This document shows positions 37,158 to 56,202 of a stretch of 64,000 bases of DNA, one piece after another (positions within the stretch are counted from its first letter, which is position 1; each line of letters starts with the position of its first letter). The notes under the pieces were generated by a model. It saw only the letters and a list, made by a program, of their open reading frames with translations. It ran no database searches and was not told where the DNA came from. The position numbers were made by a program, and so were the translations under genes. The stretch comes from Ralstonia sp. SET104 (GTDB lineage Bacteria; Pseudomonadota; Gammaproteobacteria; Burkholderiales; Burkholderiaceae): NCBI RefSeq assembly GCF_003851545.1, contig NZ_BHVX01000001.1, positions 1 to 64,000 of the forward strand, in the 5' to 3' direction.

Positions 37158-37275
37158 GTAGAACCGCCGCGCAGACGGCCCCACTGCGCGCAGAAGCCGA
37201 CCAAGATTTGCGACAACGGTATCGCTTTCGCAGAGCTTGCTCGCATAGCCGTGCATGCCAGCGTTGGCGGGCTTC

Positions 37276-37303
37276 ATGCGCTCACCATGCGCTCACCATG
37301 CGC

Positions 37304-37308
<5 letters not shown>
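37276..37308. repeat. 11-bp tandem repeat, three copies
   Basis: ATGCGCTCACC occurs three times in a row, followed by another ATG. It overlaps the stop codon of the response-regulator gene that ends at 37304. Copy-number change would alter only sequence beyond the stop. Confidence 0.85.
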
Positions 37309-38017
<709 letters not shown>

Positions 38018-38023
38018 GGCGGC

Positions 38024-38266
38024 CTACCGATCCGCGCCATCCCACACGGTGAGTGCGTTGAATGCCGCATCGGCCCACGCAGAACAGGTGCCGAGGTATT
38101 CAGCCTTGCAGACCTCGTCCATGGTGAGGAAGTGGTCCAGCGCGTTGGCATGCAGCATGCCAAGGAAGGTGCGCAGCTTTGACAGCTTGTCGAACAGCTC
38201 CGCATGCGCTTCAAGGCGCACGGCGATATAGGCTTCGGGGCGGGAATCGTGGGTGGGATGGGTCAC
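38024..38266 (-). CDS. Small protein behind C4-like RNA, copy 1
   Basis: 80 aa from GTG 38266, with GGAG seven bases upstream. It is soluble and helical: RLEAHAELFDKLSKLRTFLG, LHANALDHFLTMDEVCKAEY, then LGTCSAWADAAFNAL. An identical protein is encoded at 38780-39022 and a related one (RLEAHDALYDKLGKLRTMLS) at 53058-53315. All three follow the same structured RNA. No family name is known to me. The helix pattern recalls small Pseudomonas proteins such as DUF3077, but that is only a resemblance in layout. Confidence 0.75.
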   Translation of the reverse strand: MTHPTHDSRPEAYIAVRLEAHAELFDKLSKLRTFLGMLHANALDHFLTMDEVCKAEYLGTCSAWADAAFNALTVWDGADR

Positions 38267-38310
38267 GCTCGGTCTCCGTTAATTGGAACGATGCGCGCCA
38301 CCCAAAATGA

Positions 38311-38503
38311 GGGGTGGGCGAGCACAGACGAGGTGGAACACCGATGAACACCAGTCGGGGCGGCCAAAGCCGCGCTCGCCCGGCTCGCCCATGAAGGCAA
38401 ACCAGGCCATAGCAGACAGAGGGCAAGTGTCTATGCTCGACTCTTGCCCGGTGTTCACGAGGGTTCCACGCCTCGGCCCCTTTCTCTATGGCACGAAAGG
38501 GAC
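38311..38503 (-). ncRNA. C4-antisense-like structured RNA, copy 1
   Basis: On the minus strand the RNA starts near 38503. GCCAUAG/CUAUGGC close a first domain with hairpin GAGG-CCUC, loop GUGGAAC (38463-38469), and hairpin GGGCAAG-CUUGCCC, loop CGAGCAUAGAC (38429-38439). The second domain is closed by GGGCGAGC/GCUCGCCC. It contains GUUCCAC (38333-38339) and GUCUGUGCUCG (38319-38329), exact or near-exact complements of the two loops. This is the a'/b'-a/b layout of phage P1/P7 C4 RNA. Covariation with copy 3 supports the pairings. Confidence 0.75.
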
Positions 38504-38509
38504 GCGGAG

Positions 38510-38539
38510 AGTCTAGCGATGAATGGCCTGGGTCGCCAA
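38510..38539 (-). promoter_or_regulatory. Promoter of structured RNA copy 1
   Basis: Minus-strand -35 TTGGCG (38534-38539) and -10 TAGACT (38510-38515) are 18 bp apart, placing the start site at the 5' edge of the structured RNA. The same arrangement recurs at the other two copies. Confidence 0.6.
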
Positions 38540-38773
38540 GGCAATCCAGAGAAAGTGACAATTATGGCAGAGGGGGATGGGGTGGCCTGCGGGCGGCTCC
38601 GCCCGGCCCCGCTTGCCTTTATCGTGATCAGGCGAGACGACCTGCACGGCGGCTTGCGCCTGCGCGAGGTTATCGACCCATTGCACATGATGGCCGCTGC
38701 CATATAGCGCTTGCGATAGCTGTTGGGCTGCTGCTGCGTCGGCTTCAACCAACAAGATTCGATTGCCAGCCAT
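38513..38773 (-). pseudogene. Truncated duplicate of the atypical response regulator
   Basis: The first 49 codons (MAGNRILLVEADAAAAQQLS to VVSPD) repeat the gene at 37304-38017 with one or two changes. At about 38630 the frame passes the duplication joint and continues into unrelated sequence (HDKGKRGRAEPP...) until a stop at 38513. The product would be half a receiver domain and no DNA-binding domain. Confidence 0.85.
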
Positions 38774-38779
38774 GGCGGC

Positions 38780-39022
38780 CTACCGATCCGCGCCGTCCCA
38801 CACGGTGAGCGCGTTGAATGCCGCATCGGCCCACGCAGAACAGGTGCCGAGGTATTCAGCTTTGCAGACCTCGTCCATGGTGAGGAAGTGGTCCAGCGCG
38901 TTGGCATGCAGCATGCCAAGGAAGGTGCGCAGCTTTGACAGCTTGTCGAACAGCTCCGCATGCGCTTCAAGGCGCACGGCGATATAGGCTTCGGGGCGGG
39001 AATCGTGGGTGGGATGGGTCAC
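38780..39022 (-). CDS. Small protein behind C4-like RNA, copy 2
   Basis: 80 aa, identical to copy 1 despite several silent or non-coding changes in the duplicated DNA (for example GTGAGTGCG against GTGAGCGCG), which hints at selection on the protein or a recent duplication. GTG start at 39022 with GGAG upstream. It is followed by the truncated response regulator in place of an intact one. Confidence 0.75.
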   Translation of the reverse strand: MTHPTHDSRPEAYIAVRLEAHAELFDKLSKLRTFLGMLHANALDHFLTMDEVCKAEYLGTCSAWADAAFNALTVWDGADR

Positions 39023-39066
39023 GCTCGGTCTCCGTTAATTGGAACGATGCGCGCCACCCAAAATGA

Positions 39067-39258
39067 GGGTGGGCGAGCACAGACGAGGTGGAACACCGAC
39101 ACATACCAATCGGGGCGGCCAAAGCCGCGCTCGCCCGGCTCGCCCATGAAGGCAAACCAGGCCATAGCAGACAGAGGGCAAGTGTCTATGCTCGACTCTT
39201 GCCCGGTACGTGCGAGGGTTCCACGCCTCGGCCCCTTTCTCTATGGCACGAAAGGGAC
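39067..39258 (-). ncRNA. C4-antisense-like structured RNA, copy 2
   Basis: Same fold and same loop/target sequences as copy 1, with small changes confined mostly to the hairpin between them (CCGACACATACCAATCGG here). Promoter TTGGCG (39289-39294), 18 bp, TAGACT (39265-39270) on the minus strand. Confidence 0.75.
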
Positions 39259-39413
39259 GCGGAGAGTCTAGCGATGAATGGCCTGGGTCGCCAAGGCAAT
39301 CCAGAGAAAGTGACAATTATGGCAGAGGGGGATGGGGTGGCCTGCGGGCGGTTGCGCCCGGCCCCGCTTGCCTTTATCGTGACGCGATTGTACCCACCGA
39401 CACCCGCGCCCAG

Positions 39414-53057: not shown

Positions 53058-53315
53058 CTACCCGGCAAATCCATCGGCCGTCAGCATGGCCGCATACGCG
53101 CTGTCGGCCAGCTCCATGCACGCCCCCAGGTAGTCCGCTTGTCGGTGTTCCTCCATGCGGCGGAAGTGTTCAAAACCGCTGGCGTGCAACATGCTCAGCA
53201 TCGTGCGCAGCTTGCCGAGCTTGTCATACAGCGCGTCGTGCGCTTCCAGGCGGCGAGCGTCAAAGGGTTCGGAGGGTTCGGAGGATTCGGGGGTTCGGGG
53301 GGTGGCTTGGGTCAT
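53058..53315 (-). CDS. Small protein behind C4-like RNA, copy 3
   Basis: 85 aa from ATG 53315. The core, RLEAHDALYDKLGKLRTMLS to DYLGACMELADSAYAAML, is clearly related to the identical 80-aa proteins at 38 and 38.9 kb. The N-terminus differs and contains a short SSEPSEP run from a GGAGGGTTCG repeat. No response regulator follows; the next gene downstream is on the opposite strand. Confidence 0.75.
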   Translation of the reverse strand: MTQATPRTPESSEPSEPFDARRLEAHDALYDKLGKLRTMLSMLHASGFEHFRRMEEHRQADYLGACMELADSAYAAMLTADGFAG

Positions 53316-53374: not shown

Positions 53375-53571
53375 GAAGGGTGGGCGAGCACAGGCAAGGT
53401 GGAAGACCGATAACTAGCAATCGGCACGGCCGAAGCCGTTCAAGCCTGGCTCGCCCTTTGAAGACGAAGCCAAGCCATAGCAAATGAGGACAAGCGCCTA
53501 TGCTCAGCACTTGCCCGCTAGTCACGAGGCTTCCACACCTCGACCACTTTCTCTATGGCACCGAAAGCAGT
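53375..53571 (-). ncRNA. C4-antisense-like structured RNA, copy 3
   Basis: Diverged copy of the element at 38.3 kb. Loop GUGGAAG (53530-53536) pairs with CUUCCAC (53399-53405); loop GAGCAUAGGC (53496-53505) pairs with GCCUGUGCUC (53386-53395). Compared with copies 1 and 2, one pair in the first helix flips C-G to G-C, and one in the second changes A-U to G-C. The inner hairpin changes from GCGGC/GCCGC to ACGGC/GCCGU (as read on plus). Compensatory change argues for a conserved RNA fold. Confidence 0.75.
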
Positions 53572-53872: not shown

Positions 53873-54295
53873 ATGCCACACTACGTGAATGCGCCGCGAG
53901 GCAGCGCAGCGTTTCGGGAGCAGTTCAATGCCATCCGCGAAACTTTCATCTCCCGCTTCGCACAGCTTGTTGCTGCCGAACGGGTTGAACGGTTTCGAGT
54001 TTGCGATTGCGAAGGCCGCCCGGTCGATTGGATTTGGAACAACGAGACCTTCAAATACGAGGGGCAGGTCGGGACGGCAACCGATGCCCAACGGTATCTC
54101 GAGGCCATGTTCAATCAGGGCATGTACGTCGCTTGCATCGTAGTTGACTCAACCGATGGCGCCGAGATGTGGCTCACAGCATGGGAGACACCGGGAGATG
54201 CTCCGCCATGGCCGCCGGGGATTACTGGTAGGAACGAGCTCATTCACGATGGCGTTCAAATAGCCTCGCCGTTGCACCAGGTGCCGCGTCAGTGA
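53873..54295 (+). CDS. Passenger protein of the insertion sequence, unknown function
   Basis: 140 aa from ATG 53873 (MPHYVNAPRGSAAFREQFNA). Soluble; ISRFAQLVAAERVERFRVCD, VDWIWNNETFKYEGQVGTA and MYVACIVVDSTDGAEMWLTA are the main blocks. No family recognised. It lies wholly between the terminal repeats, is convergent with the transposase and overlaps its end by 7 bp. It could assist transposition, regulate the transposase, or be cargo. Confidence 0.65.
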   Translation: MPHYVNAPRGSAAFREQFNAIRETFISRFAQLVAAERVERFRVCDCEGRPVDWIWNNETFKYEGQVGTATDAQRYLEAMFNQGMYVACIVVDSTDGAEMWLTAWETPGDAPPWPPGITGRNELIHDGVQIASPLHQVPRQ

Positions 54296-56202
54296 GCGCC
54301 ATAAGGGTCGAAGTACACGATATCTTCGACATGGACGCGGCCCTTGGCCAGGCCGAGACGTTCGGCGGGAGTCTTCCCATCTTCGCTGCCCTTGGGCACG
54401 AAGCAGTAATTCCAGTACACCCGAAGGATAAGAAGTAGCTTCTCGATGATTTGGGGGTTGTACGGTGCATAGCCGTACCAGACTCGGCCGGCAGCGCTGG
54501 ACGTCGAGACGGCTCGCTCAAGAATACTCAGGCGCCGGCGGATGAGCTCCATAAACCGGTCTGCACCGTACATGGAGCCATACAGGAACATCTCGGCCAA
54601 TCGGTCTGCGTCAAGCTCGGGTTCAGGACGGCCCGTCAGATGGCACAAGGCCTTCTCGGGCTCGTTCATGGTCGGCAGCGGGTGCATAAGCCACCGGTCG
54701 CCGTAGCCGCCAATCTGGCGCATTAGGGGAAACTGGTCTTTGATGAGCTGGAGTTTGACTTTGAGCTCCTTCCGCTTAGGCATCCCCAGCATCGCATCCG
54801 CAAAGCGCTTTTTAGCCTCGTTGAAGGCCTTTAACTTCTGCCCCTTCGTCATTGTCTTGTTGACCGAGACAAAGAAGGCGTGAACCCGCCCCTCCATCAC
54901 TTCGTCCTTGAACGCCGCCAAACAAGCGGCATGTATCCCCGCATCCTGGTCAAGATAGAAGGTGATGCTTTTGGCTCCCTTCAGAAGTCGCTTCAGGACC
55001 TGGAAGTGTGCGTAGAGGGTGTACTCCGCATGTATCTGCATGCCCGCTTCTGGGAGCCGAAGGGCTTCATTAAACTCACCGGAGATTTCAACGTCATCCC
55101 GTGTTTCGGCGGTCTTGTAGACTGCCTCCGCGTGGTCCAATGCCTTTTTGCCACGGAAGACGCGCCGGTTCGCGCTTGCTGTTACCGAGGTCTCATAGTC
55201 ACTCTTCAGCCAGAACCGCGCGTTCCGGCGATATTCCTGCTGCCGCAAATCGTCATCGTCTGTGTGAACATCAGCCTCGACTGCGGCGGGCGTGAAGCGA
55301 GGGTCGAAGTTCAGATGGGCGCCAAACACGTACCCTGAGCGATTGTCAGCGGCAATCACAGCATGGAGTGGGACGTTTCGCTTGTCCTCCCGTCGAACCC
55401 AGTTTGTGTAGTAGTCCTGCCGGTCCACCGATATCGAGAGATGCTCGAGTGGCAGGCCGGCGGCCAATCGTCGCTCTCGCCTCGCGAGGAATCGCTTGCA
55501 CTGTTGAAACAGAAAGTCGATTTTTCCGTACAGCGTCGGCGCCGCAATATCCCGCTTCTCCATGATTCGACGGAACGGGGCCTTGTTAACCAGCTCCATG
55601 AATATCTCTCGGTTCTCATATGGCTTCTTCTGGCCAGTCGTCGGCGTTGGCACGGCGAAAGTGCAACCGCAGGCCTTGCAGTGGTAGCGTGGAGAGCCAT
55701 GGACGGTCTTGCCGTATCGTTGATAGGATTTGCGGCAGGCATAAATGCCCTGGCCGTGGTTCGGGCACGCCTCATCCGGACACGACGGCTCTGGCTCGGG
55801 AGCCAAGTACTCCATGAGTCGCTGAACCTCCTCGGCAATAGCGAGGTTGGATTTGACAGGTGGTGTGTCGCCACAAAGCTTGCAGCGCAGTGCAACCCTC
55901 GGCGTGCCGCGTTTTAGCCTGCCGCCCGATAGGACATAGGTGTCGTGGTTTCCTGAACCACGTCCCCGTTTGCTCACTGCCTTTGGGGGTACGCCGTAGT
56001 TCCAACAGACAGGGTCCTTACAGAAGTTGACCTGGATGCCGTCGACTTCAGGAGGGATACGGGGAGTGCCTGACGCAGCAGACCCTGCGGCAGGTCGATT
56101 GACGCGAGTACGGCTTACCGCACCTTGTGGTGGGGCAACTGACTGTTCGTTGGTGGGAGGGAGACCAGAGGGGCCGTCCTCTCCCGAAAATATCTTCGGC
56201 AA
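54289..56202 (-). CDS. Zinc-ribbon DDE transposase
   Basis: Up to 637 aa. Two Cys4 zinc ribbons: Cys61/66 with Cys107/110, and Cys141/146 with Cys175/178 (YHCKACGCTFAV), the latter like InsA-type domains. Likely catalytic Asp in SISVDRQDYY (about 260) and in TFYLDQDAG (about 418). The end, IEKLLLILRVYWNYCFVPKG then TPAERLGLAKG, is typical of integrase-like transposases. The only start near the N-terminus is TTG 56202, inside the T run of a hairpin; a downstream non-ATG start may be used. The first Met codons come after the first zinc ribbon. Confidence 0.8.
   Translation of the reverse strand: MPKIFSGEDGPSGLPPTNEQSVAPPQGAVSRTRVNRPAAGSAASGTPRIPPEVDGIQVNFCKDPVCWNYGVPPKAVSKRGRGSGNHDTYVLSGGRLKRGTPRVALRCKLCGDTPPVKSNLAIAEEVQRLMEYLAPEPEPSCPDEACPNHGQGIYACRKSYQRYGKTVHGSPRYHCKACGCTFAVPTPTTGQKKPYENREIFMELVNKAPFRRIMEKRDIAAPTLYGKIDFLFQQCKRFLARRERRLAAGLPLEHLSISVDRQDYYTNWVRREDKRNVPLHAVIAADNRSGYVFGAHLNFDPRFTPAAVEADVHTDDDDLRQQEYRRNARFWLKSDYETSVTASANRRVFRGKKALDHAEAVYKTAETRDDVEISGEFNEALRLPEAGMQIHAEYTLYAHFQVLKRLLKGAKSITFYLDQDAGIHAACLAAFKDEVMEGRVHAFFVSVNKTMTKGQKLKAFNEAKKRFADAMLGMPKRKELKVKLQLIKDQFPLMRQIGGYGDRWLMHPLPTMNEPEKALCHLTGRPEPELDADRLAEMFLYGSMYGADRFMELIRRRLSILERAVSTSSAAGRVWYGYAPYNPQIIEKLLLILRVYWNYCFVPKGSEDGKTPAERLGLAKGRVHVEDIVYFDPYGAH

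What the first reader, a model, noticed from the sequence alone, without database searches (positions are those of the whole stretch)
38311..38503. C4-like antisense RNA with two intramolecular loop-target pairings, conserved in three copies
Seen directly: on the minus strand, hairpin loops GUGGAAC and CGAGCAUAGAC are complementary to GUUCCAC and GUCUGUGCUCG about 100-130 nt further along the same RNA. In the diverged copy at 53375-53571 both members of each pair changed together (GUGGAAG/CUUCCAC and GAGCAUAGGC/GCCUGUGCUC). A matching -35/18 bp/-10 promoter precedes each copy. Established: phage P1/P7 C4 RNA uses two loops (a', b') against two targets (a, b) upstream of the regulated ORF. Inference: these are chromosomal C4-family RNAs controlling a small-protein gene.
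Basis: partly seen in the sequence, partly recalled or inferred. Interest (0 to 1): 0.85.

Follow-up and report, generated by a model that had tools for sequence, protein, structure and literature searches.

The report
Chromosomal C4 antisense RNAs, privately addressed
The window carries three copies of a phage-type antisense RNA (C4) in front of small-protein genes; each copy carries its own matching pair of RNA loops, and two neighbouring copies are nearly identical except at those loops.

Summary
Rfam C4 (RF01695) matches all three copies, minus strand: 46.5, 45.5 and, for 38310-38396, 43.3 bits (cut-off 45). The leader matches c4-a1b1 (RF03163) weakly.

Over 20 loci a1:a' and b1:b' co-vary (each 0 of 20,000 permutations). 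Both also hold in 16 further loci found with a leader-only model.

The tandem copies at 38 and 39 kb differ at 19 of 756 sites, 10 of them in or next to the two partner loops. The genome, a Ralstonia by inference, has at least 22 C4 loci; 16 of 16 genus genomes carry C4, and within genomes a' loops are almost never repeated.

One large class of Ralstonia C4 loci has second targets at the Shine-Dalgarno site (29 of 39 distinct loops); none was found for the window's type.

Likely mechanism: processed C4 silences transcripts bearing its own leader. No expression data. New variant of a known kind.

The parts
38510..38539 (-). promoter-like site TTGGCG-18-TAGACT, copy 1
   Evidence: same pattern in 13 of 20 type A loci
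38406..38504 (-). structured leader, copy 1: hairpin 0, hairpin I (loop b1), linker a1, hairpin II, and loop-3' pairing GCCAUAG:CUAUGGC
   Evidence: hairpin 0, hairpin II and the loop-3' pairing co-vary over 20 loci (the stem of hairpin I was not tested); RF03163 sub-threshold match 38455-38516
38463..38469 (-). b1, loop of hairpin I
   Evidence: co-varies with b'
38450..38457 (-). a1, variable linker
   Evidence: co-varies with a'
   Evidence: complementary to 38319-38329 but no co-variation over 20 loci
38310..38396 (-). C4 antisense RNA core, copy 1
   Evidence: RF01695 43.3 bits, cut-off 45
38345..38352 (-). a' (P3 loop), copy 1
38333..38339 (-). b' (strand between P3 and P1), copy 1
38024..38266 (-). 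80-aa helical-hairpin protein (class A), GTG start
   Evidence: 18-member alignment, median dN/dS 0.22 over 99 of 136 pairs, AF2 mean pLDDT 86.8
37304..38017 (-). response regulator gene directly downstream, in the block absent from two relatives
   Evidence: Pfam Response_reg and Trans_reg_C
37174..39346 (.). block with the response regulator and two C4 units, absent from G012 and G001
   Evidence: flanks 7-8 bp apart in L234 and L239; the left flank is another sequence in the other 13 of 15 relatives
39065..39151 (-). C4 core, copy 2 (tandem)
   Evidence: RF01695 45.5 bits
39205..39212 (-). a1 of copy 2, CACGTACC
   Evidence: 5 bases differ from copy 1; 4 have a matching change in a', the fifth turns A-U into G-U
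39100..39107 (-). a' of copy 2, GGTATGTG
38780..39022 (-). class A protein, copy 2, same amino-acid sequence as copy 1
53376..53462 (-). C4 core, copy 3
   Evidence: RF01695 46.5 bits
53469..53571 (-). leader of copy 3
   Evidence: leader model R1, 110.1 bits (this copy is in the model)
53058..53315 (-). class A protein, copy 3 (85 aa)

Best explanation
These are chromosomal C4-family antisense loci of a type seen here only in the host genus ('type A'). Shown by sequence: one minus-strand unit has a promoter-like site, a structured leader with targets b1 and a1, a C4 core with b' and a', and a small gene. b1:b' and a1:a' are kept by compensatory change, and a' loops are almost never shared between loci of one genome. 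Inferred: the core is cut out of the transcript (RNase P, as for phage C4), pairs in trans with b1 and a1 of new leaders of the same locus, and stops their expression before the small gene, most likely by premature termination since no convincing target lies at the ribosome-binding site. Private a1:a' addresses keep the many copies in one cell from silencing each other. Loci spread by insertion and duplication, and duplicated copies end up with different addresses.
For: Rfam C4 and weak c4-a1b1 matches. Co-variation of a1:a' and b1:b' in 20 loci; out-of-sample check in 16 loci found with a leader-only model: a1:a' 21.22 vs 12.97 (sd 1.11), b1:b' 17.12 vs 15.07 (sd 0.46), both 0 of 20,000. Among 17 distinct a1:a' pairs of 8 bases: 128 Watson-Crick, 5 G-U, 0 A-C, 3 other, which favours the minus-strand RNA. 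Tandem copies: 10 of 19 substitutions in 18 of 756 sites. Within-genome repeats of a' loops: 1, vs 10.8 (sd 2.5) shuffled, in 125 of 134 loci. Class B loci of the genus have a' targets at the Shine-Dalgarno site: 29 of 39 distinct loops vs 3.9 expected, at most 10 in 300 permutations. Both window sites lack the C4 unit in relatives.
Against: No expression, RNA-end or mutant data. No second target at the gene in 20 loci (p 0.58 for a', 0.77 for b'). In the 16 further loci b':downstream has p 0.25, but a':downstream shows a small excess (13.50 vs 12.78, p 0.008). Premature termination is borrowed from P4/P1 (recalled); the hairpin just after the core co-varies only weakly (p 0.001 in 18 loci, uninformative in 16) and is followed by only a few T. 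Locus G13b (L030) breaks the a1:a' rule. Some own-genome loci could cross-talk: C14 a1 with the 53-kb a' scores 18.5, C16 a1 with C8 a' 18.
Confidence: 0.6

Rival explanations
1. Cis folding: leader and core of the same molecule pair with each other (a pseudoknotted precursor). The pairing governs RNase P processing or read-through, with no action in trans in this type.
For: Both partners lie about 100 nt apart on one transcript; type A shows no convincing second target downstream. Co-variation cannot tell cis from trans.
Against: In sister Ralstonia loci the same a' also matches a second site at the Shine-Dalgarno sequence, and phage C4 acts in trans (PMC8546580, passages). Private a' loops per copy make most sense if RNAs meet in trans.
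Confidence: 0.25
2. The main targets lie elsewhere: these RNAs guard against incoming phages, satellites or mobile elements with matching a/b targets, and the leader serves as autoregulation or decoy.
For: C4 sets P1/P7 heteroimmunity (PMC12197685, passage); Weiss 2016 raised the same idea for Acinetobacter (PMC5320573, passages). The two window sites lack the unit in relatives.
Against: No match of the 53-kb RNA in 50,697 phage or 72,556 plasmid records and no class A protein found in IMG/VR. Among 19 of 43 leader places examined one, L269, is half a leader without a core; no complete leader stood alone (the five weakest places were not examined).
Confidence: 0.1
3. Decayed phage immunity remnants without function.
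For: Some remnants exist (L044; L268 and L269).
Against: Compensatory change, purifying selection on the small protein (median dN/dS 0.22), and 191 of 191 identical leader-core bases in two genomes whose adjacent gene differs with dS 0.45.
Confidence: 0.03

Closest known systems
C4 antisense RNA of phages P1/P7 (Rfam RF01695)
   Same: P1-P2-P3 fold, a' in the P3 loop, b' beside it, targets upstream of the core (recalled for P1; RF03163 in Rfam), a' variable and specific
   Different: chromosomal and multi-copy, no phage gene among the seven neighbour proteins scanned, unrelated small protein, no convincing a2/b2 at the gene's ribosome-binding site
c4-a1b1 (Rfam RF03163)
   Same: leader with targets of C4, same position in the transcript
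   Different: 19.8 bits vs cut-off 46.7; adds hairpin II and a loop-3' pairing
Group 1 C4-like sRNAs of Acinetobacter baumannii (Weiss 2016, PMC5320573)
   Same: 21 similar chromosomal copies, variable a' loop, processed from longer transcripts
   Different: in the parts I read the targets are left open and two antisense sRNAs are proposed to act on them; here each locus carries its own co-varying target
isrK-C4 unit of Burkholderia cenocepacia (PMC4603805)
   Same: leader RNA and C4 in one transcription unit, seen by dRNA-seq
   Different: phage-related and on a genomic island; the isrK model matches the leader of a class C locus weakly (L009, 48.8 bits, cut-off 50), not the window's type

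Membership tests
C4 antisense RNA (RF01695) | covariance model score at or above 45 bits | tested here: inconclusive
   46.5 and 45.5 bits pass, 43.3 bits does not
C4 antisense RNA (RF01695) | P1-P2-P3 fold over the whole model | tested here: met
   3 of 3 copies align to positions 1-87 of 87
C4 antisense RNA (RF01695) | a' and b' complementary to targets a1/b1 in the same transcript | tested here: met
   exception L030
C4 antisense RNA (RF01695) | targets a2/b2 at the ribosome-binding site of the regulated gene (P1 type) | tested here: not met
   type A: p 0.58 / 0.77, 0.008 / 0.25; met in class B, 29 of 39 distinct loops
C4 antisense RNA (RF01695) | RNase P processing to about 77 nt | not testable with these tools
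   needs RNA data; the core starts with GGGCG and ends CCAC in the type A alignment
c4-a1b1 (RF03163) | model score at or above 46.7 bits | tested here: not met
   19.8 bits, E 0.0058 in 231 bases
isrK (RF01394) | model score at or above 50 bits | tested here: not met
   no match in 38300-38530 at E 10
Rop (PF01815) for the small protein | Pfam score at or above 25 bits | tested here: not met
   no match in the own genome at E 10; weak profile hits E 0.085-0.37; hhalign probability 6.5 percent, E 0.0056

The most novel reading that the evidence does not exclude
The Ralstonia C4 loci are a spreading set of privately addressed RNA modules: every copy silences only itself, and selection after duplication gives new copies a new loop-target address while the rest of the unit stays the same. 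A bolder add-on (about 5 percent) is that the class A helical-hairpin protein works like Rop of ColE1, steadying the loop-loop contacts of its own RNA.
Probability: 0.35. Interest if true: 0.75.

Novelty: new variant of a known kind. Interest (0 to 1): 0.55.

Why it matters
It gives a natural series of antisense addresses (64 distinct a' loops in 125 loci), many with a target that can be read from sequence, and two tandem copies that differ mostly at the address. That makes the evolution of insulation between paralogous antisense RNAs directly testable. It also puts C4 RNAs, known from phages and from Acinetobacter, in 16 of 16 genomes of the genus, with a class A or B small gene of unknown function behind 99 of the 134 loci collected.

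Tried and rejected

Leader b1 freeing the ribosome-binding site by pairing with the GUUCC in front of it: rejected by reading the sequences, because that GUUCC does not follow the changes in b1; no separate test was run.

Rop homology of the small protein: weak only. Foldseek gave no match at E 0.001 or better; two-helix hairpins match unspecifically.

Pfam and NCBIfam gave nothing usable for the small proteins. PHROGs gave weak hits only, best E 0.0068 to a family of unknown function. No class A relatives in phages, plasmids or IMG/VR by protein; no class B in IMG/VR.

Literature: 'Ralstonia' with 'c4 antisense' found 0 papers in the held open-access library; a wider Ralstonia small-RNA search listed nothing on C4 by title or abstract start (12 of 19 seen). 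P1 papers of the 1990s were not held, so their details are recalled.

A first statistic on duplex energies with random non-cognate loci was blurred by orthologues: the own leader beat 95 percent of others in 47 of 125 loci, the own downstream stretch in 41 of 125. It was replaced by permutation of partners.

Full report
WHAT IS THERE. On the minus strand, three units share one layout: promoter-like site, about 100-nt leader, C4 core, small gene. Rfam C4 covers 53376-53462 (46.5 bits), 39065-39151 (45.5 bits) and 38310-38396 (43.3 bits, 1.7 below the cut-off). The part of the 38-kb leader that holds hairpins 0 and I is a weak match to Rfam's model of C4 targets, c4-a1b1 (38455-38516, 19.8 bits, E 0.0058).

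PAIRINGS. I aligned the unit from 20 loci of the genus (two rows are identical in this stretch) and scored the best contiguous helix between own partners against permuted partners (20,000 permutations each). a1:a' gave 19.55 vs 11.06 (sd 0.73) and b1:b' 19.18 vs 15.73 (sd 0.59); hairpin 0, hairpin II and the loop-3' pairing were also never reached by permutation. The P1 stem hardly varies and says nothing (p 1.0). In 19 of 20 loci the own a1:a' helix is the best or tied best of the row; L030 (G13b) is the exception, with two A-G mismatches. Non-Watson-Crick cells in 17 distinct a1:a' pairs are 5 G-U, 0 A-C, 3 other, as expected for the minus-strand RNA. Some of the 20 loci are close relatives, so they are not 20 independent events.

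OUT-OF-SAMPLE CHECK. A covariance model of the leader alone (A6, R1) found 43 places in 14 of 16 genus genomes at E 1. Of 19 places that I examined, one was already in the set (L030), two were decayed (L268, L269), and 16 were tested: 16 of 16 have a 9-11-nt a1:a' helix, G-U allowed, in 10 distinct forms; a1:a' 21.22 vs 12.97 (sd 1.11), b1:b' 17.12 vs 15.07 (sd 0.46), both 0 of 20,000. Two of the 16 (L246, L257) carry class A proteins that one search had listed. In the other 14 I saw no class A ORF; 13 of them show another small ORF with the motif YQKG. In 120 genomes of the family 9 had a match, all of the genus.

TANDEM COPIES. The 38- and 39-kb units align over 757 columns: 737 identical, 1 gap, 19 substitutions. 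Five lie in a1 and five in or next to a'. For 18 sites (8 of a1, 10 around a', set after looking) the chance of 10 of 19 is 2e-13. Four of the five a1 changes have a matching change in a'; the fifth turns A-U into G-U. Both copies pair with themselves over 8 of 8 bases, and cross-pairing is weakened (21 and 19.5 own, 14 and 11.5 crossed). Two histories fit: both loops changed after duplication, or two old addresses were kept apart while gene conversion made the rest alike. Relative G013 holds the 38-kb address at one locus and an a' like the 39-kb one at another, which leaves the second open.

HOW MANY. The window's genome has at least 22 C4 loci: 19 (16 over the cut-off), the two at 38 and 39 kb that its first look missed, and one at C24 (38.0 bits, below the cut-off). 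C4 was found in 16 of 16 genus genomes, 2-20 each (lower bounds), and in 11 of 45 other relatives. The genus is Ralstonia by inference: the 8 named loci with a relative of the small protein come from two Ralstonia genomes. Of these, 125 could be parsed and 9 could not. Within genomes only 1 a' loop is repeated, against 10.8 (sd 2.5, minimum 2) when labels are shuffled; b' (30 vs 37.7, sd 2.9) and P2 (57 vs 51.5, sd 2.3) are repeated often.

OTHER TYPES. Of the 134 loci, 92 have a class B protein downstream, 7 class A, 35 neither. In 56 distinct non-class-A a' loops, a' and b' match the leader and a downstream site better than permuted partners do, 0 of 5,000 each; singly, the own partner beats at least 90 percent of others in 32 (a'-leader), 43 (a'-downstream), 22 (b'-leader) and 14 (b'-downstream) of 56. 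In class B the downstream a' site sits at the Shine-Dalgarno sequence in 29 of 39 distinct loops, against 3.9 expected. That is the P1 plan as I recall it. The window's type lacks it: a':downstream p 0.58, b':downstream p 0.77 in 20 loci; p 0.008 (13.50 vs 12.78) and 0.25 in 16.

THE SMALL PROTEIN. Class A occurs in 7 of 16 genus genomes and 0 of 85 others, class B in 16 of 16 and 0 of 85. Class A is under purifying selection (17 of 18 aligned proteins; median dN/dS 0.22 in 99 of 136 pairs; third positions vary most) and is predicted as a two-helix hairpin (residues 10-48 and 51-76, mean pLDDT 86.8). No Pfam or NCBIfam family covers it. Its best sequence hits among solved structures are a Salmonella protein (3soz, E 0.078) and Rop (E 0.085-0.37). 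Rop steadies antisense loop-loop contacts (recalled), which is suggestive, but the Rop model finds nothing in this genome.

SPREAD. In G012 and G001 the flanks of 37174-39346 lie 7-8 bp apart, so the block with the response regulator and both C4 units is absent there; in the other 13 of 15 relatives the left flank is another sequence, so insertion is likely but not proven. At 53 kb no match to the C4 unit was seen in 15 of 15 relatives within the 1.5 kb held: in 9 the oxidase gene is followed after 26-522 bp by the sequence of window 58.1 kb, and in G013 by the catalase gene after 55 bp, where the window has about 3.4 kb with the C4 unit and a transposase-like ORF. Seven neighbour proteins scanned with Pfam show no phage gene; the 637-aa one had no match. 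BLAST found no match of the 53-kb RNA in phages or plasmids; a class B locus matches 19 plasmid records, mostly Burkholderia, and 22 Pseudomonas phage records over part of its length.

LITERATURE. Weiss 2016 (PMC5320573, passages and one section) describes 21 similar C4-like sRNAs in A. baumannii with a variable a' loop and processing. Weinberg 2010 (PMC2864571, passages) lists C4 and c4-a1b1. PMC4603805 (passages) reports isrK and C4 in one transcription unit in B. cenocepacia. PMC8546580, PMC8198154 and PMC12197685 were seen as passages on P1 C4. 'Ralstonia' with 'c4 antisense' gave 0 papers in the held library, which is open-access only.

VERDICT. A real, conserved C4 system whose copies are privately addressed; a new variant of a known kind. 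Identity is near certain; the mode of action in the window's type is inferred.

Noticed in passing
54289-56202 (-): 637-aa ORF with cysteine pairs like a zinc ribbon, looks like a transposase; no Pfam match at E 0.01. It lies in the stretch absent from G013.
   Followed up: no
upstream of type A leaders, e.g. L027, L020, L032: CTGATTT ahead of the promoter-like site in 13 of 20 loci; absent from the 38- and 39-kb copies. Perhaps a shared regulator site.
   Followed up: partly
L019 and 13 of the 14 loci among L242-L261 without class A ORF: Type A leader and C4 core in front of a different small ORF (motif YQKG or YQQG, then AREFLR-like), which resembles the start of class B proteins: RNA and ORF seem to be exchanged between types.
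   Followed up: partly
L269 (G005:C2:153068): Half a leader with hairpin I and no core: a remnant or a bare target.
   Followed up: no
L081:3385-3466: Rfam 'Pseudomonas sRNA P9' at 63.9 bits beside a class A locus of an uncultured Ralstonia.
   Followed up: no
class B loci, e.g. L001, L003, L004: The first reading frame after the core codes a short peptide with RPASYPSPP; perhaps like phage Icd/Ash proteins (recalled, untested; sequences).
   Followed up: no
L044 (G000:C1:139819): Truncated class A unit: 3' part of the core and start of the ORF without a leader.
   Followed up: no
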